From positions 1,088,457 to 1,139,692 of the forward strand of contig FN649729.1 in the NCBI GenBank assembly GCA_000310025.1: a stretch of DNA of 51,236 nt, written 5' to 3'. The position numbers and the translations under genes were made by a program. The notes beneath the pieces were generated by a model. The model ran no database searches, was not told the DNA's origin, and worked only from the letters and a program-made list of their open reading frames with translations. Below, in pieces: positions 78 to 16,899 of this stretch (position 1 is the stretch's first letter; each line of letters opens with the position of its first letter). This stretch comes from Ectocarpus siliculosus. Lineage: Eukaryota; Sar; Phaeophyceae; Ectocarpales; Ectocarpaceae.

Positions 78-1571
78 AGCGCCGTGAGGTATTCGGCGAG
101 TCGCATTAAGAGTGAGCTGCATCCTGCTAAGGGTGTTCGGCATCTTGTGCTTACTTCCTTGCGTACGGATGACAGCTACGTATGACTTACTTTATTTTCT
201 GGCGCTTTCACTTCCAGAGACAGTTATAAGCACTGTGTAACTGCCTCGAGGATGTTTTTCCAATTTAACACAACGTGGTGCGATCATCCCCCGTTGCGCG
301 GAGTGAGGGTTCTCAACCCCACACAACATGATCTACTCGACCACCATTCATGGTTACCGCAGAAACAAAAATCAGAGGTAAAACTAATAACGGTAACCTG
401 GTTGCCGACTTCACGAAGTGAATTGGCTTGTTTTATAACGTTATTGCCAAGCGACGAAAACCCAATTCCGATGGCAAACACCGAGGGGAGGGCTTGTTTT
501 ACAACGTCGTTGCCAAGCGACGAAAACCCAACCCCGATGGCAAACACCGGGGGGGGCGGCTTGTTTTACTACGTCGTTGCTAAGCGACGAAAACCCAACC
601 CCGATAGCAAACACCGGGGGGGGGGGACCGAGGGGGGGGTGGGGGGGGGGGGGGGGATTCGGCTGGCCGTGTGAGAAAATTGTCTGTACATTCCAGGGGG
701 GGAAAACGAGTGTCGAGAACCTATAATAAGTTGTTGAGAGGCTGACGCGGACTTGTTTACCATGGGTGGATGTCCACCAAACACTTATTAACTTTTGGAA
801 AAAGTCTCCTTGTCGGCAGCGCCGCCGAAATGTATGCTATGAGCATAAGTCACTCGAGCACCAAGCGTGAAGAGCAAACCTCTCACGAAGTTGTTCCTCT
901 CCCTCGCCAAGGCCACTTCGAAAAACACAAGAAAAAAAACACCCAACAATCAGAAACAAGACCGGATGCTCACGAGCTCTTGACGAAGCCGCTTGTACTT
1001 TCTCGCCGCGGAGTTCCGTCCCGTCTCCCCTCCATCCCTGCCGTCGGCTTCCTTTCGAGTGGAAACCCCTGTCGCTGTAGACGACGGGGAGGTTTCCTCT
1101 CTGCCCCGCTTGCGGCTACCGCTGCCGCTTCCGTTGAATCTATTGGCGGTTTCCTGTGGCGTTCGCGGGGAGACCAGTGCACGACGCGATCAAACGAGAC
1201 ATTTTTCAAACACGAAAGCTCAAACAAAGAAATGCTTGAAAAACAAACCTCAGCTCTTCATTCTCGGGACCCTCCGTCGAACGCACGTTTCACACCCCCA
1301 AAAACTCGAACCATCCGTGAACACGAGAGAATCCTGCCACAAATCGAGGAAGAAATTGCGCAAAACGATTCAATACAAATAAATGTATGAAGCACAACTC
1401 TAGAGAGAAAACTCAACAGAGCAAGGGGAAAAAATAGAGCATAGCTCAGAAAAACGTGAGAAGCAACAATGCGGTCGCAATCGTGCGGACAACCGGCAGC
1501 ATGGGTTTCAAGTACGACACAACAAAACATCAGAACAACAAGAGGAGGAGCGCTGTTATTGCAGCTCTTAC
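78..1571. other. No supported gene; left flank of the WW/NELF-C/D gene
   Basis: Apart from the tandem repeat at 425-620 and G-rich runs at 549-656, I see no supported exon. The 3' exons of the minus-strand NELF-C/D-like gene should lie here or beyond the left edge. I looked on the minus strand for the conserved second half of TH1 proteins and did not find it. The open frames at 770-1390 (plus) and 1258-1713 (minus) resemble nothing I know. Confidence 0.5.
425..620. repeat. Three-copy tandem repeat, about 66 bp unit
   Basis: Copies begin with GGCTTGTTTTA at 425, 491 and 558. Each carries AAGCGACGAAAACCCAA and ends in CAAACACCG followed by a G run that lengthens from copy to copy. The third copy runs into a poly-G tract reaching about 656. 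The same unit read on the minus strand gives a repeated short peptide, which is why an open frame appears there. Confidence 0.9.
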
Positions 1572-3284
1572 CGCCGCGGCGGCCTCTTGTCGTGACTCCT
1601 CTTCTGCCGCCCTCTCCAGGTTGATGAGGAGTTGCTACAGCACAAAAAAACAAGAACATGCACGACGGGTGCGGACGGCGATGGAGGGGATACGCAGAAT
1701 CATCATCACGCATACCGCATACTCCGGCACTGTAAGGCCAAGACGGGTCAAGTCCGATGTATCGTCAGCAAAGCGCTATGTGCGAGACGCAAGCGTGATG
1801 CGCAGCCAGCCTGAGCACACCTTCCTCGCAACAAACCAGAAGCAAAGTTGAACACACTTGGTTCGGGCTGAAGCCACAGCAGCAGCAGCAGCAGCAGCAG
1901 AGGCTGGTGAGTGCCGCGACCTTCTCCGGGCAAGGGGTATGTACATGGCACATACATATCACCACCCCCACGGGACACAAACGAGGTACACAGCACGCGT
2001 ATTGCGCACCTGAGAATACATGAACATGTAAGAAGTGCTGCAGCACATGCGCTTGAGGTCCGCCAGTGCCTCCGTCGCTTGCACCTCGTCGTCCGCGGGT
2101 ATTCTAGCCAGGGCATCCTTCAGCACCCCTGTTTTCGGGGAAACAACGGTGTAAGACATGGGACGGAGAGCGGAACAAGAACAGGTACAAGGCGGGGGGG
2201 GGGGGATACGGTGTGAAAAAGAAGGGCAGTCTTCCTCCATGCTCCTGCCTCTCTCCTCTGCCTCTCTGTGTGTGTTGTCACCACAACCATATGTACCTAC
2301 CTTTCTCTTCCATCGAAACAGAGACACCTGTTTACTTTTCTCGTCCATCGAAACACGAAAACCCCCTACACATGCCTCACCATTAAACACCGAAAAAAGG
2401 TCAGTCTCGCTTATGACCGAAGCGATCTCCCTGTGGTAGCCCATGTCGCTGAGCTGCTTCAGCACGAAGCGGAGGAGGGCGGAGGCCCTGTGCTCCCTCG
2501 CCAGCTCTATCAGGGTGCGCCTCCAGCCGGTGTCGTCCTGCATGGCCGTCAGCCAGGCGGGCATGCTCGAGTCGAGGAGCGTGTCCACCTAAGCCGACGA
2601 CGGCGCACAAGCGGAGAGCGCGAAAAACAAAATGCGCGTGTGTGTCTGCTAAGGTGGGCTTGTTCGTGCTCGCCCGCGGAGCAATGGAGGAGGAGGAGGA
2701 GGAGGAGGAGGAGGAGGAGGAGGAGGAGGGGTGTGAGTTGCTCTATCTAGTATGAGGGTCCGTGCGCGCTTCTTCGCAAGTGCCACGAAAGCGGTCGACC
2801 AATGAAAATACTGGATCGGGCCGGGACGAACCCCCAAGAAAGCGATTCGTTTGTTCGTGCGAACTCCAGACAGGGGGGTTGCCGAGGAGGCAGGATGGAA
2901 GGCTCAAGCCTCTGGAGACAAGAGCTCTTTCGCGTGTTCACGTGCTAATTTCCTTCTGCACCAGCGCCGTGTGCGATTGTCGTCGCTCAGCATTCTCGGG
3001 GCAAACAAACCTTCTCGCGTTCTGCTGCGAGGCAAGGACAGGCTGTGAATGGTCGAGTGCTGACGTCCGGGAGCGTGTTTCGTTGGACACAGCAAAACGA
3101 ATGCAATGGGTAAATCGGCCGAGTTGGTCTCCTGGTCGAGTTGATTCGACGTCAGCGCCAGCGTATTTAGCCGCGGGGAACACTTTCAATGGCGGACTCG
3201 GCTCCAAACAGACCCAACCACACCGGACCAAGCAACAACTGGTAAAAACTACTGGTACCTTAGATCAAGAATGGAACGAAAAAG

Positions 3285-3320
<36 letters not shown>

Positions 3321-3810
3321 TTTTCGCGTCAAAGTTGGTCTTGATTAGCTTCTTGAGCTGCTGCAGCATCAGGCTCTCTGTATCTATGTCCCCCTTTGTC
3401 GCCTGTAAACGGAACAGAAAGCAACCGGCGGCCCGGTTGTTGCTTAGACGTAGCATTTACTATCGTGCATCTGCCTCGCTTGGGTGCAGGCGGTTGCGCT
3501 TGCCCTCAGTCACCCCTATCAAACCGCCAGCAACCCAGTGCTACACCAAACATCTCACTACGGTCTGTGCCAGCAACACAAGCACCCACCATGGACGCCA
3601 TTTTCCATGGTGTATTGTATCTCCCTTTCCTCCGTCAGTTTGTCTATCTGTCTGACTGAACTATTGCCTTGGCAGTCTCACCACGCGTATCCAATCGTTC
3701 ACCATCGACGCCTGCTGTGCGTAGCCATTGTACCCGGCGATGAGCTTCTTCACGCTGGCGTTACGGGTTTCCTACAAGACGACATTCGAGACGGAGATGC
3801 CCAAGAGAGA

Positions 3811-3907
<97 letters not shown>

Positions 3908-6190
3908 AGGGAGGGAGAGAGAGAGACAATGACAAGATGATGGACCGTTCTGGTTCCGTTCTGCCGCCCGTCGTGCATCGGAGATTTCATCGTAGCGAGT
4001 TGCGCGTGAGAGACAGACGCGATACTCTTCGCTCCAACAATACGCGTGCACTCTCACGCGAGAGGAAAACTCTCCATCGCGCAAGCGCACGTATGTTGTG
4101 CATGCCACAATCCAGGTCTCGATTCGGAGGGAAAAACAGGCACGTACCACCGTGCCTAGCGACCCGGATAAACACACGAGTCTATGTAGGTCACCTTGAG
4201 GAACGCCTGCCTATTGGGCGCTTCACCCTTCAAGTGCTGCAGCCGTTCCCGTGCGCTCTGGTAGGCCGCGACTCTGGCGGTGAAGTCGACTTCCATGATG
4301 GCGTCCCTCTCCTCCAACTTCGCGCCATCGATCGAGGGAGGGGGGCAGACAGGGGGGTCAGTTCTAAGGTGGTGTGGGGTGGAACTTGCATCGCCATCAT
4401 AGCTTGGTGATTCCCGCCATTCATGTGTCAAACTAGAAACCTTTCTCCTTTTCCTGCCTGAGAAAGGCCCGTTCTTGGTCAGAAGAGAGAACGAACATAC
4501 GAAACCAGCGGGTGTAACGGGCGTGGGTAAGGGGGTAGGCTAGCATCACCACTCCAATCCCGATGTACAGCAGCCGTGTGTAGTGTGGGTTTCGATCCGT
4601 TGTTGCGACCATTCCTTTTCAGCCCCCCCCTCCCGTCAAACTATATGTTGAATCAACCTCTCGACTCAAATACGCAAAGCACCAAAAAAATGTGACCCAA
4701 ATTTTCAGATTTGCATATGCCTCATACCCGATGTTCGGAAGTAGCCGCGCAGAAATACACTCTGGTAAAATGATGTCGTGGAACCACACACCAGCACACC
4801 ATCTTGAACTCACCCTACGTTCGCAATCCGCGATCTTGCTCTCCGCGCTCTTCACCATCTTCGCCATCTCTTCCTCCGAGTACTGCGGCTTCCCGTCCTC
4901 CACCGAGTTCTCCTTCCCCTTCCCCCCCGCCTTCCTCAACCCCTGCTTCTGTCCACCGCCCCCGGCAGCAGCGCCCCCGGCGCTCTCGACAACGGGGGAC
5001 AGGCCGCCGACCGCGGACGCTTCGCTCTCGTTCGGCGATGCCGAATTTTTGCCCCCTTCCAGCTCCTCCTCCTCGTTCACCTGCCATTCCGCGTCGTGGT
5101 TGGGAGAGTAGTCGTCGCCGAACGCCGGGAACGACAGCCCTAGCTCCGGCGACGGGGAAGGTTGGTTGCTGTGGCTCCTCTGGTCCTTGCTGCTGCCGCG
5201 GGTCCGACTTGCAGCGGTGGAGGACCCGTCCGCCCGCGACGGGGATGGGGACCGTGGCGATGAGGACCTGGCTTCCTCTTCCTCCTCTTCGTCCTCGGGG
5301 GAGTAGTGAGGGGAGGGGGTGCCGTCGTAACCTCCGGCAGCGGACGCATCCGCCACTACCGGCGAAAGGTTAAGCCTTCCCTCCTCGACCTTCTCCACCG
5401 GTTCCGCTGGCGATTGCGGGTAGTACTCTTGCTCTGAGTCGTTGTCGCTGTCTGCGGCAGCGGGTGTAGCAGCAGCGGCGGCGGTGGCGGCGGTAGCGGC
5501 AGCGGCGTGGAATTTCGTATACTCCTCCGGCTCGTCCCACGAAGACTCCTCGGTGACCTCGTTGTAGTAGAAAACATCGCCGCTTTCTTCGTCTCGGCTT
5601 TGGATCCAGGCACAAGTAGCGGCTTCAGCACCATCAGCGGCGTCAGGGGCGCCCCTGTCTTCTTGTGTTCCCGTCTGTCGATCGATCTCCTTCGCGGCAC
5701 CAGCCTCGTCGTAGCCAACGGCAGCAGCATCAGCATCAGCAGCAGCAGCAGCCGGAGTACCTTCAGTGGATGACCCCGCCCTCGAGCCTTCCTCCCCTTC
5801 TCGCTTCTCCTCTTTTTCCGCTGGAGAATCAGGGGGTGAAACCGCAACGAAGGCTTCCTCGCCCTGGTCCCCGGAAGAAGCCTGGGAGAGGCCTAACAGG
5901 GCTTGCGCGCCCTCCGCATCGTCCACTTGGCGCTGGTCAGCCCCTCCCACATCCTCCGCTTCGTATGCTTTACCAGCACTACCATCGCGACCACCAGCGT
6001 CGTCATTGGCTCCGCCATTGGCTCCGCCATCGGCACCGCCGCTGGCTTTTTCGTCGAGACCGGCGAAGTGGGCTTCCCATCCTGGCGGGACATCCCACTC
6101 TGACTCCTCAGTGTTCTCGTTGTAGTAGAAGACGGTGCCAGTGTCGTCCCAGTGCCGTTGCCAGGGGCAGACCTCGGGTGCTGCTGCCAT
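1572..6190 (-). CDS. WW-domain protein fused to NELF-C/D (TH1-like) elongation factor subunit, 3' partial
   Basis: Seven exons are read on the minus strand: 6190-4814, 4317-4195, 3771-3682, 3402-3319, 2588-2381, 2128-2010 and 1634-1572. All phases match and they give 688 residues. Residues 10-38 and 195-222 are WW domains (W10/W32 and W195/W218, each with FYYNE). Residues about 225-459 are acidic and Ser/Pro-rich and end in a charged helix that continues into exon 2. From about residue 500 the protein follows NELF-C/D: VKKLIAGYNGYAQQ, then LKKLIKTNFDAKK, PAWLTAMQ with GWRRTLIELA, MGYHREIASV, and VFNGVLKDALARI. These match the N-terminal half of animal TH1 proteins in order and spacing. NELF-C/D belongs to the negative elongation factor, which holds RNA polymerase II in promoter-proximal pause. 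The C-terminal half is not found, so the gene is incomplete. The start is the first ATG, directly before the first WW domain. Two separate genes remain possible. Confidence 0.82.
1878..1901. repeat. (CAG)8 microsatellite
   Basis: Eight uninterrupted CAG units lie in the last recognised intron of the NELF-C/D-like gene (between exons 2128-2010 and 1634-1572). They read as CTG in the transcript. Confidence 0.9.
2686..2729. repeat. (GGA)n microsatellite, CCT on the transcribed sense
   Basis: About 14 GGA units lie in the intron between exons 3402-3319 and 2588-2381. In the minus-strand transcript this is a CCU tract ending about 100 nt before the acceptor of exon 2588-2381, so it could serve as an extended pyrimidine tract. 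Confidence 0.9.
3287..3318. repeat. (AC)16 microsatellite forming a 5' splice site
   Basis: Sixteen AC units directly abut exon 3402-3319. On the minus strand the exon ends in GCGAAAAAG and the intron begins GTGTGTGT, so the donor site is the first repeat unit. The exon end is fixed by homology (FDAKK) and by phase with the next exon. Confidence 0.85.
3816..3905. repeat. (GA)45 microsatellite, CT on the transcribed sense
   Basis: Ninety bases of uninterrupted GA lie in the intron between exons 4317-4195 and 3771-3682. On the sense (minus) strand it is a CT tract ending 44 nt upstream of the exon acceptor. The open frames crossing this stretch (Glu-Arg or Ser-Leu repeats) are artefacts of the repeat. 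Confidence 0.95.
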
Positions 6191-6711
6191 ATTGCGCCGC
6201 TTTCTCTCCCTGCCGACGCAAGCACACTCTCTCTCTCTCGACTCACAAGCTCACAACGCACGGGGCAACAGAGACGCGCATGCACATACCAGACCGCTGC
6301 CGTCTAGCTGTCCTTTCTTGGGCGCTCGCTCCCCGGGATGCGGCGCAACCGGCGTGGCTACCGAGCGGGCACGCGTCGCGATATTCTACCCCTGCTCTTA
6401 GAAATCCTTGCAACTGCGGAGCCCCAGGTGGCTGGTTCACTTGCTGGTTTGCTGCCATTGTCGCGTTGTGTCTGCCAAAGGCAAGGAGCACCACCACCTC
6501 TCCTCTGTCGTTCTGCTGTCATTTTCCCTCACATATCTGTCGTACTCCGGAGCGCTCGATTTTCCAGCGAGTTAGGCACGTGATTTCGTGCGAGAGCGAA
6601 AAATATCGTCGGAGTGTCAAGCACACGCGGCGGACACTACTCCTGTAGGGCAGTCGAGTCTCGCTAATAAGGCCTGCTTGGGAGGGCCGGTCTTCGTTAG
6701 GCATACACAGG
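6191..6711. promoter_or_regulatory. Shared divergent promoter region
   Basis: This 521-bp segment separates the start codons of the minus-strand WW/NELF-C/D gene (6190) and the plus-strand RRM gene (6712). It must hold both 5' UTRs and both promoters unless upstream untranslated exons exist. I see no clear TATA box. The divergent layout suggests a bidirectional promoter, which is an inference. Confidence 0.5.
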
Positions 6712-9465
6712 ATGCCCAAAGAGGCGCAGCCAAAGCGGAATGTGTACGTGGGGGGGCTGGAGGAGCAAGTGAACGAGGAGATCCTACACGCCGCCTTCGT
6801 ACCGTTCGGGGATATCGTTGAGGTGAGTAAGGGTACAGCACCAAAGAGACCTGCGTACCGTCTACATAGTCTACGGCAACGGCAGGCACGCGATTTTCGG
6901 CCAGTAGCACCCGCAGTAGGTCAGAGCGTAGCGTGGAGCTTTGATCCGTGAAGCAGGGCGTTACCTCACATCGGTTGCACAGAAACCTCAGGGATGGTCT
7001 TGCACCCTCCACCTGCGAGGTCGTAGATAGCCCGCACCACGAACAGCAGTGGCATAGCGGTCCTCGAAGGGGAACAAGCACTCCCGATTGACAGTGGGTG
7101 TTATCTTCGAGGGAAGTACATACACTAGTTTGTTTGGTGTTGAAGCACTTGAGCTGACCGCAGCTTTTGAAACGAAGTGTCATTCGGAAAGGACCATTCG
7201 CCACAGGAACCGATAGACCCCTTTGATTGGCGTAGGTTGGCATGTGGGCACATGGGTGCTGAATAGCCGAGTTAGTTGCAGGGATGATTGGGGGATGGTT
7301 CCACCGCAATGTTTGTTACATATCTGCACTACACTTGACAATAGGTTCTACATTCACGAAGGGCCCAGCCTTTGTCTCTGCACACACACGTGATGGCTCC
7401 TAGCAACGTAGATCATCACCACGGCTGCCCTATGCAAAAGCAGACCGCGTGTGCTGCTGCTGTCACCTGTCGCCGCAAGTACCGCCACAGGTTTGTATGA
7501 CTCTGATCTACACGAGGCACGTGTGTTTGATACGCTCGATCCCGTAGTTTGCATGGGCGCCAAAAGTAGAAGACAGAGAGAAATCAAGGGCCATGAGCAC
7601 CACCAGCCAGCTGGCGTGTCAAGCGATGCGTTGACTGAGGGTTCGTGCTGCCGTGGGAAGCGACGTCTCCCGCTCTGCTTGGGCTACGACCGAATCCGAA
7701 TCCGCGCCTGCGGAAAGAGAGAAACAGAGAGATGTGAAGAGAGAGAGAAAGGCAGGCCTCTAGTGGCAACGCCGGATATTTGTGTCAGAGTATGTTGAGC
7801 ACGGTTTTTCTAGGAAGTATACACAACCTCGAAGAGAGACTACCCGTTCGAGATATATTGCCACAGCTGTCGAGAGGGATGTGCTGAAGTCTTTTCAGTG
7901 AGTGGGGGAAAACCGACTGGACACATGGCCTTATGTTGAGTTTGTTTAAGCCTATACACTGAATCGTACCATTCATACCAGCTGGTGCTAAGAACAACGT
8001 TTTTGTCACAGGGCGCGGCTAGTCCACCACCTGCAACACGGCTACACTACCTGCAACACGGGTACCAACCGTTTACTATCAACCATGTCCTTCTCGTTAC
8101 CGTTTGGCGAAGGTCAATCTTCCAAAGGACCACGTGGCGAATACCCACCGAGGCTTCGGATTCGTCGAGTTCGAGGTGGAGGAGGACGCAAAAGCGGCAA
8201 TAGACAACATGGACGGTAAGATTGAGTGTCATTCGTTGTTGTTGCTCCTCATCGCTGCCTGAGAGCCCAGACGTTTGAATCATGTTTACCCAAAGCGGCC
8301 GATGCTGAATGTGTATGTTAGTTATGTACAGCAACAGTGTCAAATTCTCACTTTGAAGATTAACCCGAGAAAATTGCGTCATTGGTACAGCCGCAGAACA
8401 AAAAAGCTGAAATCCTTTTCTCTAACAACTCGTCTCTCGACGTTCAAACCAAGCGCTTTACAGCCTGGCAGGGCGAGCTGCTGCGGCTGGTCTTCGTGCT
8501 CGAGCGATCGACTGGGTGAATCACTTTTCTCGATAGACTCGCCGTGCCGTCTCTCGCGATGCTACAACCCGAACTAAATCTCTAGCGCCGCAGTGGCACA
8601 CGGGACGCCATTGCGGGTGGTCTTGCCAGGCAACGGAGAAGGGCATCTTGCGTCTGTATTAACAACCCTATTGTGCAACGGCAACTTTTGTGTTGCTTTT
8701 TCTGCGCCTCTCTGTCGCCTGCCTGCGCGTGCACCCGCCCGTGTCGTGCACGCTCAGGGGCCGAGTTATACGGAAAGGTGCTGCGAGTGAATGCCGCGAA
8801 GCCCATGAAGCACAAGCTCGGGGCCCACACGGCAGGTGATGTGACTGTTTACTCCCACGCGTTCCTTATTGCAAGTTTTGCAGCTGTGGCGGAGACGGCC
8901 CCTTGTCTTAATTTTCTAGGCCCCGCGCTCACAACCGTCTGCACGCGACAACGTACTTATGCGCGTCATCTGACACTGATGGTGCCGTTTAGTATCGCTA
9001 CACCTCTTCTGATCGACGCCGGCAGTCGTCTTGTTTTTGCATGCATGCCAGTGCGGAGCAGCGTTCGACACGACAATGTAGCAACACAAATCATCCATTC
9101 CGTGTAGGGATATCGACACGGACGCTTTTTCACGTGCTTGCAGTGTTACCATTGGCGTCAGCCGTTTCTGTTATTGTTTTCTTCTGATTGGCCTTGACGA
9201 TACAACGCGCGGTGTGATCAGCCGACCAGACTCACATCTGGTTGCGGAACAATCGGCCTTTCCTTTTAACACCCCCGTGTTCGACTTGTGGCTTTCTGCT
9301 TGATCTTCTCGCCGACAACAACAACAACATCACCCGCCTACAACACCAGTATGGTCGGCTGACGACTGGTACAAGAATACACTGGTGGAGGGGGACGACA
9401 CTGCGAAGCTGGCGGGGGACGAGTTAGAACCGGCAGACGCATTAGAGCCTACCGTATCAAACTAG
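6712..9465 (+). CDS. RRM protein related to the N-terminal half of cyclophilin E/CYP33
   Basis: Four exons, 6712-6822, 8113-8215, 8758-8835 and 9350-9465, join in phase and encode 135 residues with a TAG stop. The RRM has RNP2 as VYVGGL (residues 11-16) and RNP1 as RGFGFVEF in exon 2. Helix residues EEILHAAFVPFGDI and the segment AIDNMDGAELYGKVLRVN are those of the cyclophilin E RRM. After it comes VWSADDWYKN, which matches the conserved linker VWSDDDWLKK of cyclophilin E. Human cyclophilin E continues into a peptidyl-prolyl isomerase domain. Here the frame stops 38 codons after the start of the linker, and I see no cyclophilin motif downstream. In the known family the RRM binds AU-rich RNA and spliceosomal or chromatin partners; I infer a nuclear RNA-binding role. 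Upstream it faces the WW/NELF-C/D gene. The start ATG directly precedes the RRM. Confidence 0.88.
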
Positions 9466-15323: not shown

Positions 15324-16862
15324 TCACAGGAAGCCCACCACCAAGCGGAACAAGTCATCACCCTCCAGTCCGACCAGTCTGCCCACAAAATCCCTCAAGT
15401 CGACCATCATGTCGTCTTCCGTCTCCTCATCATCCCCACCCGAACCCTCGCCGCTGACCCGCACCACCTTGGCGGAGCAACCCTTGCTGCTGCCGGCGCA
15501 GCTACCGCTGCTACTGCAGTTTCCGATCTGCACCGTCGTCGGGCAGGAACGGCTCAGCACCAGCCAGCCGCGGCGACGCCATGACCTATCGGCTGGAGCG
15601 GATGCCAGCATTCGGCGAATGAGCTGGTTGTCGACCTCGAATCCTGCGTCGTTGTTGCCTTTATCTTCCCACACTCCGATCACATCTGCAGGGGTGTCTC
15701 CACGTTGTTCATGAGTTTCTCATCTGCCCCCCAACGCAGCATGAGCCTCACAGACGCCACACTTGACCACAAGCAAGCTTCGTGCAGCGGCGTCTGGCCA
15801 TAATTATCGCGCGAAATGAAATTGGCCCCTCCCTCCAACAAGGCACAGATGGTGCCTCTCGATGCTATCCGACGATCTACGGCAACACGCAGAGGCGTGG
15901 GGCAACTGTTGCTAGTGGTCTTCGCGTTGACATCAGGTCCGGCTTCCAACAGTACACACGGACAGCATCGCCGTTGTCAACGACGGGTTTCCCTTCTATT
16001 TCAGTAGCACGGCAGTGTAGGGCTGTGTATCCGCCATCATCGGTGGCGTCGACTTCACTGCTGTCTGCGTCAAGGAAGGCTTTCACGATGGTCGCGTGAC
16101 CGCTGGTTGCAGCAATCTCGAGTGGAGAATAGTCGTTGTTGGCACGAATGCCGGGGTTGGCACCGGCAGCTATAGCAGCTTTTCGACACCTCCGAGATGG
16201 TTGGTTTCTGCCGCCGTGAACAGTGGGGTTTCACCTTCATAATCATCCACGTCCTTCTCTGCGCCGCCCAGCAAAAGCTCAGAGATACACAGCGTATGGC
16301 CCTCGGAAGCCGCCAGGTGGAGAGGAGTGCGGCCGAAATGCGTCCTCGCATCTATCTATACTTGGGCCCGTTTCAGAAGAAGGATACCTGCAACTCCGTG
16401 GTGCCCTGCTTTGGCAGTGAGGTGGAGTGAACTTGCACCCTCCCAATCACGTAGATTCGGGTCTGCCCCAGCGATCATGAGCGCCGTGCATGAGGCTTCA
16501 GCACCCCGCGCTGCCGAAACGTGGAGGGTGGACTCGTTTGTATTCCCGAAGCGGACGTTTACATCCCTCCTCGCCCCAGCCTCGAGCAAAGCCCGCACCA
16601 TCTTGTCGCTATTGTTGCCGCATGCAGCCGCACCTAGCAGTGTTCGTCCATGACAACCCCGCCAGCCTGCTTCCCCGTCGGCACCAGCGTCCATTAACCG
16701 TGTGAAGAGATCCAGGTTTCCTCTGGCAGTAGCATGCTCCAGAGGTGCTCGAAACCACTGCTTCCACTGCTCCGGAGCCGCCTCCTCCTTGACGAGTTTG
16801 AAGATCTCGATCTCGAAGCCGTCAAGACGTGAGCGGTGTCCTTTCCGTTTCGGAGCGTACAT
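15324..16862 (-). pseudogene. Ankyrin-repeat protein gene, broken by a stop and frame changes
   Basis: From 16862 the minus strand encodes an N-terminal region and then ankyrin repeats such as PLEHATARGNLDLFTRLMDA, TLLGAAACGNN, STLHVSAARG and SSLHLTAKAGH. The frame then meets TAG near 16355 inside GTATAGATAGATG. Homology continues beyond it in the same frame with TPLHLAASEGHTLC and TPLFTAAE. A frame change near 16170 leads to SPLEIAATSGHATIVKAFL, another near 15955 to LLEAGPDVNAK and TPLHEACLW, and a third near 15690 to DVIGVWEDKG and RSWRRRGWLVLSRSC, a basic C-terminal segment. Four lesions in 1.5 kb argue for a decayed gene, although sequencing errors or unseen introns could explain some. 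Ankyrin repeats bind proteins; the specific role is unknown. The break positions are given to the nearest ten bases or so. Confidence 0.8.
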
Positions 16863-16899
16863 CGTCTTGGGTTGCTCTCAACTGGATCATTTTTGGTGC

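What the first reader, a model, noticed from the sequence alone, without database searches (positions are those of the whole stretch)
1572..6190. Two WW domains apparently fused to a NELF-C/D homologue
Seven exons join without a phase break. They lead from two WW domains through an acidic Ser/Pro-rich region and a charged helix into a clear NELF-C/D (TH1) N-terminal half, over five exons in the right order. NELF is best known from animals and is absent from yeast and land plants. WW domains commonly read proline-rich or phospho-Ser-Pro ligands, including the RNA polymerase II tail in factors such as Prp40. A fusion would place a polymerase-tail reader on a pausing factor, which I have not seen described.
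Basis: partly seen in the sequence, partly recalled or inferred. Interest (0 to 1): 0.88.

Follow-up and report, generated by a model that had tools for sequence, protein, structure and literature searches.

The report
Pausing factor with two WW domains
A brown alga's version of NELF-C/D, a protein that helps pause the gene-copying enzyme RNA polymerase II, carries two extra WW domains of a kind best known from splicing proteins, and water moulds share this design, so it looks like an old, overlooked feature of this branch of life.

Summary
The window is Ectocarpus siliculosus: a database protein of that species (1130 aa, "conserved unknown protein") is identical over this stretch except that it omits 103 residues holding the second WW, and it supplies the rest of TH1. 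No second such locus was found in the held genome. Most relatives found share the architecture: other Ectocarpus, oomycetes (several already named "negative elongation factor") and two unnamed metagenome proteins; 47 of 55 sequences that keep the TH1 start have two WWs. Both WWs are closest to Prp40/PRPF40A and TCERG1. A Pin1-like phosphoserine-reading loop is absent, so "polymerase-tail reader" is possible but unshown; my best guess is a tether to proline-rich parts of polymerase or early splicing factors. Nine literature searches found no paper describing it. It is a new variant of a known kind: real, probably ancient, and testable. No transcript data were available.

The parts
4814..6190 (-). 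exon 1: start codon, WW1, WW2, acidic Ser/Pro-rich arm, charged helix at the start of the TH1 match
   Evidence: open frame, donor GTGAGT, phase 0; Pfam WW and start of TH1 match
6083..6169 (-). WW1 (residues 8-36)
   Evidence: Pfam PF00397 two stretches; closest PDB PRPF40A 2l5f E 2.6e-10; 0.90 identity to P0005
5525..5617 (-). WW2 (residues 192-222)
   Evidence: Pfam PF00397 best stretch 194-221; closest PDB Prp40 1o6w E 1.7e-9; 0.81 identity to P0005
5452..5760 (-). 309-bp in-frame GT-AG stretch holding WW2, left out of the database model P0001, kept in six of six other Ectocarpus or related models (P0002-P0007)
4910..5524 (-). arm, residues 223-427: 36 acidic and 16 basic of 205 residues, 12 SP pairs; predicted disordered
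   Evidence: pLDDT < 50 at 46-331 of P0001
5099..5152 (-). conserved short motif SPELGLSFPAFGDDYSPN in the otherwise variable arm (residues 347-364)
   Evidence: 0.94 identity to P0005 against 0.47 for the whole arm; its SFPAF core is in P0001-P0007 and in none of the other 67 proteins
4195..4317 (-). exon 2, TH1 (LEERDAIME...)
   Evidence: DAIME-type start motif shared with oomycetes
3682..3771 (-). exon 3, TH1
3319..3402 (-). exon 4, TH1; its donor lies at the edge of a GT repeat
2381..2588 (-). exon 5, TH1
   Evidence: Pfam TH1 E 1.8e-6 for this exon alone in the whole-genome search
2010..2128 (-). exon 6, TH1
1572..1634 (-). exon 7, TH1
974..1153 (-). exon 8 (not in the finding): low-complexity insert ending RKYKRLRQEL, donor GTGAGC; the gene continues below window position 1
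   Evidence: matches P0001 exactly

Best explanation
This is the NELF-C/D gene of Ectocarpus siliculosus, the only TH1 locus found in the held genome. It encodes a complete TH1 (NELF-C/D) body with a long flexible N-terminal arm bearing two Prp40/TCERG1-type WW domains. SHOWN: the architecture, its sharing with oomycetes, and stronger conservation of the WWs and TH1 than of the stretches between them. INFERRED: the TH1 body works as in animals, as part of the NELF core on paused RNA polymerase II, and the arm acts as a tether. From near the NELF-B face the two WWs catch proline-rich segments of the early transcription and splicing machinery (the polymerase C-terminal tail, or Prp40-class partners such as an SF1-like factor), adding a multivalent hold on the elongation complex in a lineage where the animal add-on parts (NELF-E, the HDAg part of NELF-A) have not been reported. 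The arm's own SP motifs may mask the WWs until they are phosphorylated or outcompeted.
For: TH1 and two WWs above cut-off in one spliced frame. Database protein of the same species identical apart from the WW2 stretch. Relatives: WW plus TH1 in 10 of 10 hits and 32 of 39; two WWs in 47 of 55 sequences that keep the TH1 start. PDB: NELF-C/D is the only family that P0001 matches at 1e-5 (8 of 8 sequences, best E 8.2e-36); P0013 matches NELF-C/D over its body and Prp40-type WWs at its start. Fold: the ten best PDB chains are NELF-C/D for both models (E down to 1.3e-18 and 2.3e-12). All 11 listed whole-genome matches of P0001 are collinear on one strand of one contig. Identity to P0005: WW1 0.90, WW2 0.81, TH1 0.81, against 0.41 and 0.47 for the linkers. 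The N-terminal region of human NELF-C crosslinks to NELF-E and NELF-B (PMC4940160, passages). PRPF40A's tandem WWs bind proline-rich SF1 and are regulated by an intramolecular proline-rich motif (PMC11079029, passages).
Against: No ligand, expression or binding data. Human NELF-AC did not bind CTD peptides (PMC4940160, section 6), so nothing in the body predicts tail binding. A NELF-B search of the genome found nothing, but it rang in no control genome either. The C-terminal tail of Ectocarpus RPB1 could not be read. The E. siliculosus database model lacks WW2, and its remaining WW1 scores 25.5 bits, just under the Pfam cut-off of 26.9. Seven of 39 hits show no WW. The Ectocarpus fold model is of modest quality (mean pLDDT 56.0; TM-scores by target length 0.46-0.56 and rmsd 11.5-15.1 to the ten best NELF chains). 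The human RNA-binding patch K371/K372/K374 has no lysine counterpart in P0013 or P0001 (read off the alignments).
Confidence: 0.6

Rival explanations
1. The WW pair is mainly an internal switch: it binds the Ser/Pro motifs of its own arm (including the conserved SPELGLSFPAFGDDYSPN) and gates access to the TH1 body or to weak ligands, rather than recruiting anything stable.
For: The arm has 12 SP pairs and one motif at 0.94 identity where the arm as a whole is at 0.47. PRPF40A shows such autoinhibition (PMC11079029, passages).
Against: The motif core SFPAF is in P0001-P0007 but in none of the other 67 proteins, and the three oomycete arms examined have basic clusters instead (P0008, P0013, P0030), so an internal ligand would not be shared although the WWs are. 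The motif has no PPLP-type core.
Confidence: 0.2
2. The WWs read the phosphorylated polymerase II tail directly.
For: Nearest solved relatives are Prp40, PRPF40A and TCERG1; binding of the phosphorylated tail by yeast Prp40 WWs is recalled, not looked up. The oomycete second WW also matches the WW of PCIF1, named phosphorylated CTD-interacting factor 1 (2jx8, E 3.1e-5).
Against: Loop I is acidic in both Ectocarpus WWs (WDDTG, RDEESGD) and lacks Pin1's phosphate-binding arginines (residue roles recalled). In PRPF40A, tail binding is ascribed to the FF domains, and the WWs are reported to bind proline-rich proteins (PMC11079029, passages).
Confidence: 0.2
3. Two neighbouring genes were wrongly joined by gene prediction: a WW protein and a NELF-C/D.
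For: The intron between exons 1 and 2 (4813-4318) could hide an end and a start; no transcripts were available; the firmly conserved TH1 motif begins only on exon 2.
Against: The TH1 profile match starts on exon 1; six other Ectocarpus or related models have the same order; many oomycete proteins have it; P0009 and P0010 (JGI) carry both domains in one predicted protein.
Confidence: 0.03

Closest known systems
NELF-C/D (TH1) of animals
   Same: TH1 domain over both halves; NELF-C/D chains are the best sequence and fold matches
   Different: Human NELF-C/D is 590 aa (chain 7ycx_g) and has no WW (recalled). The Ectocarpus protein also has a long Gly/Ser-rich insert and lacks the K371-K374 lysines.
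Oomycete proteins named negative elongation factor (D), for example Phytophthora infestans P0013 and Albugo laibachii P0008
   Same: Two WWs then full-length TH1 in one protein
   Different: WWs closer together, arms with basic clusters, loop I of WW1 mostly TK[ED]GR
Prp40 / PRPF40A tandem WW domains
   Same: Closest solved WWs for both Ectocarpus and oomycete domains
   Different: Prp40-type proteins carry FF domains (PRPF40A: PMC11079029), not TH1
TCERG1 (CA150), a WW-bearing transcription elongation regulator
   Same: WW type (PF23517 matched below its cut-off) and, by its PDB name, a link to elongation
   Different: A different scaffold, without TH1 (recalled)

Membership tests
NELF-C/D (TH1, PF04858) | TH1 profile match above the curated cut-off | tested here: met
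   Window part 115.8 bits against 24; P0001 197.3 bits
NELF-C/D (TH1, PF04858) | both halves of the domain present | tested here: met
   N-half in the window; P0001 matches human NELF-C/D at 405-576 and 817-1053; the last exons lie collinear on the same contig; part of the middle reads N in the held assembly, so it is known here only from P0001
NELF-C/D (TH1, PF04858) | NELF-C horseshoe fold | tested here: met
   Ten best Foldseek PDB chains are NELF-C/D for both models; the eleventh (NELF-BCE, 8jj6) is level with or little ahead of unrelated helical repeats. Firm for the oomycete model (pLDDT 75.7), weaker for Ectocarpus (56.0)
NELF-C/D (TH1, PF04858) | partner subunit NELF-B in the same genome | tested here: inconclusive
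   PF06209 found nothing, but nothing rang in the 14 controls either
NELF-C/D (TH1, PF04858) | assembles into NELF and pauses RNA polymerase II | not testable with these tools
   needs biochemistry or nascent-RNA sequencing
WW domain (PF00397) | two conserved Trp, aromatic core ending in Asn, closing Pro | tested here: met
   Both domains in the window
Pin1-type phospho-Ser/Thr-Pro WW | basic, phosphate-binding loop I | tested here: not met
   Loop I acidic in both Ectocarpus WWs; the roles of the Pin1 residues are recalled
Prp40-type tandem WW | closest sequence relatives are Prp40/PRPF40A WWs | tested here: met
   Best solved chains: PRPF40A 2.6e-10, Prp40 1.7e-9, PRPF40A 1e-14 for the oomycete pair
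Prp40-type tandem WW | binds PPLP or polyproline ligands | not testable with these tools
   needs peptide binding

The most novel reading that the evidence does not exclude
In stramenopiles the NELF core evolved its own add-on: a WW arm on NELF-C/D that stands where animals later placed NELF-E, and that couples polymerase pausing physically to the early spliceosome or polymerase tail through proline-rich ligands, an independent solution to regulated pausing.
Probability: 0.3. Interest if true: 0.82.

Novelty: new variant of a known kind. Interest (0 to 1): 0.62.

Why it matters
NELF-B and NELF-C/D are thought to be old, with NELF-E and the HDAg part of NELF-A added on the animal side (PMC11482795, section 6). 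A NELF-C/D with a built-in WW pair, shared by brown algae and oomycetes, would show that another lineage extended the same core in a different way. It gives a direct handle on what the NELF core does without the animal parts, and on whether pausing and splicing are coupled through a single polypeptide.

Tried and rejected
Gene-prediction artefact (two genes joined): rejected, because the TH1 match starts on exon 1 and oomycetes show the same order in one protein.

That the gene ends at exon 8 (stop at 950): an early guess of mine; rejected, since P0001 leaves exon 8 at 974 and goes on.

Reach beyond brown algae and oomycetes: the profile search gave 60 proteins; the 32 that bear an organism name are all oomycetes, 28 bear none. 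Only the 7993 candidates sharing most words were scored, and proteins behind its own query alignment (for example P0045 and P0009) are not in its list, so it says nothing about diatoms, other ochrophytes, labyrinthulids, alveolates or rhizarians. Searches were capped likewise at 7994 candidates. A scan of viral contigs for P0009 gave nothing; a scan with A1 could not be built.

Polymerase tail of Ectocarpus: PF05001 rang nowhere, controls included; one strict heptad pattern found nothing; the RPB1 region was located and two neighbouring stretches read, but part reads N and no heptad array was seen in the rest. Inconclusive. NELF-B: inconclusive.

Of the 39 hits, seven lack WW in the precomputed domains: P0033 (variant 1 of an Aphanomyces invadans gene whose variant 2, P0038, has it), P0034 (468 aa; P0042, same species and contig length, holds the WW half), P0039, P0040, P0041 and P0043 (A. 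astaci models without the TH1 start motif; P0031 of that species has both WWs) and P0045 (587 aa, no WW, taxon not given; animal-like by my reading). In one search, 19 of 74 proteins lack the TH1 start motif and were left out; of the 55 kept, 47 have two WWs, five have one (P0001, P0028, P0037, P0051, P0055) and three none (P0045, and P0068 and P0071, which are fragments). WWs were counted there by a regular expression of mine that allows Tyr or Phe for the second Trp, not by Pfam. Most of these sequences are close oomycete relatives, so they are not independent cases.

Script failure: one search stopped with an error after the comparison with P0001 had been printed; the identity part was redone.
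Full report
WHAT IS THERE. The gene lies on the minus strand. The translation (with exon 8 and seven residues read past it) matches Pfam TH1 (PF04858, 115.8 bits, cut-off 24, E 3.1e-33, residues 428-679, profile positions 13-247 of 579) and WW (PF00397, 52.3 bits, cut-off 26.9, two stretches). The edge of such a match is soft: the firmly conserved DAIME motif stands at residue 464, on exon 2. Against solved structures the TH1 part matches human NELF-C/D (E 1.4e-18); the only other match up to E 1 is one aminotransferase at 0.24.

WHOSE GENE IT IS. A protein search with residues 440-690 returned ten proteins, all ten with both TH1 and WW in their precomputed domains. The best, P0001 (1130 aa), is from Ectocarpus siliculosus and is called conserved unknown protein / WW domain-containing protein. 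My window model of 748 residues, which includes an eighth exon at 1153-974 that the finding did not list, is identical to P0001 except for 103 residues. These are a 309-bp stretch, 5760-5452, with GT-AG ends, which P0001 leaves out and which holds WW2. Six other Ectocarpus or related models (P0002-P0007) keep WW2, and WW2 is 81% identical to the more distant P0005 while the stretch between the WWs is 41% identical. WW2 is therefore very probably real coding sequence; whether E. siliculosus also makes a form without it needs transcripts.

THE REST OF THE GENE. The window lies at C4:1088457-1139692 of the held genome, which has 189,456,909 bases in 492 contigs. P0001 matches that genome at 11 listed places (19 candidates scored); all 11 are collinear on the minus strand of the same contig, and the last exons were mapped there. 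Part of the stretch between reads N, so the middle of TH1 is known here only from the database protein. P0001 matches human NELF-C/D in two stretches, 405-576 and 817-1053 (E 8.2e-36). No second TH1 locus appeared, although a six-frame exon-by-exon search can miss diverged copies.

RELATIVES. A search from the TH1 part of the Albugo laibachii homologue gave 39 proteins, 32 with WW plus TH1. They include species of Phytophthora, Peronospora, Plasmopara, Bremia, Hyaloperonospora, Pythium, Aphanomyces, Saprolegnia and Achlya; several are already named negative elongation factor or negative elongation factor D. A profile search gave 60; the 32 with an organism name are all oomycetes. Across the 74 proteins of the three searches, 55 contain the TH1 start motif; 47 of these have two WWs upstream, five have one, three none. 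The three are P0045, a complete TH1 protein of unstated taxon that looks animal-like, and two fragments that lack the start of the protein. The five with one are P0001, discussed above; P0028, in which the second Trp of WW2 reads Cys; and P0037, P0051 and P0055, whose WW1 lacks its first Trp because the model's start is cut or misread. The simplest reading is one old fusion, before brown algae and oomycetes parted. That rests on two named lineages and two unnamed proteins, because the searches, all capped at about 8000 candidates, did not reach other stramenopiles.

STRUCTURE. The AlphaFold2 model of the oomycete P0013 (mean pLDDT 75.7) shows two three-stranded WWs, a low-confidence arm and a helical TH1 body. 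That of the Ectocarpus P0001 (56.0) shows one WW (P0001 lacks WW2), the arm and a helical body. For each, the ten best PDB chains are NELF-C/D: E 1.3e-18 to 2.2e-11 for P0013, and 2.3e-12 to 1.9e-6 for P0001 with modest overlap (TM by target 0.46-0.56). The eleventh is from a NELF-BCE structure and stands level with, or little ahead of, unrelated helical repeats.

WHICH WW. Each Ectocarpus WW has PRPF40A, Prp40 and TCERG1 as its nearest solved relatives; the oomycete pair matches PRPF40A at 1e-14. The core aromatics are intact. Loop I, where Pin1 binds phosphate (recalled), is acidic in both Ectocarpus WWs. A Pin1-like phosphoserine reader is therefore unlikely, and a proline-rich ligand of the Prp40 class is more likely. 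PRPF40A's tandem WWs bind proline-rich SF1 and are held in check by a proline-rich motif of the same protein (PMC11079029, passages including part of the abstract). The Ectocarpus arm has 12 SP pairs, 36 acidic and 16 basic residues in 205, and one motif, SPELGLSFPAFGDDYSPN, at 94% identity to P0005 in an arm at 47% overall. The motif's core occurs in P0001-P0007 and in none of the other 67 proteins. It could be an internal or external ligand; this is speculation.

CONTEXT FROM PAPERS. PMC11482795 (section 6 read; [quoted passage not shown] its main text does not contain stramenopile, oomycete, WW domain, Phytophthora or Ectocarpus. PMC4940160 (section 6 read; other passages) reports that human NELF-AC did not bind CTD peptides and that the uncrystallised N-terminal region of NELF-C crosslinks to NELF-E and NELF-B. 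From these I infer that the WW arm springs from the side where NELF-E sits in animals. PMC13289920 (passages) surveys ten other elongation factors for lineage-specific domains; its main text does not contain NELF or WW domain. Nine answered literature searches, of which I saw listings of the best-ranked papers, brought up no title or abstract that describes WW domains on NELF-C/D; the library holds open-licence papers only, so this is weak evidence of absence.

VERDICT. The fusion is real (about 0.97) and probably old. Its naming as NELF-C/D is met on sequence, coverage and fold; partnership with NELF-B could not be tested. The mechanism is inferred: a proline-rich-ligand tether from the pausing factor to the transcription or splicing machinery (about 0.5 on its own). 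Direct reading of the phosphorylated tail (0.2) and an internal switch (0.2) are the main rivals. The architecture already sits unremarked in public databases, so it is a new variant of a known kind, not a new kind.

Noticed in passing
5452-5760 (-): In-frame 309-bp GT-AG stretch holding WW2 is removed in the database model of E. siliculosus but kept in six other Ectocarpus or related models: a candidate retained intron, cassette or annotation error.
   Followed up: partly
6712-8860 (+): Divergently oriented gene starting about 520 bp from the NELF-C/D start codon, with RRM exons (Pfam RRM_1 8.9e-10 at 8023-8262; a second at 6652-6951 is just under the cut-off). It looks like a PPIE-type cyclophilin by recall.
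   Followed up: partly
16359-16877 (-): Open frame with ankyrin repeats (Ank_2 8.1e-19).
   Followed up: no
3287-3318 and 3817-3904: The donor of exon 4 lies at the edge of a GT (CA on the + strand) repeat, and another intron carries a long GA repeat; length changes there could affect splicing.
   Followed up: no
P0039, P0040, P0041, P0043: Aphanomyces astaci models join part of TH1 to RRM and PX domains; this may be a neighbouring gene wrongly merged.
   Followed up: no
P0009 and P0010: Unnamed metagenome proteins with the same order of domains, but the second Trp of WW2 is Tyr.
   Followed up: partly
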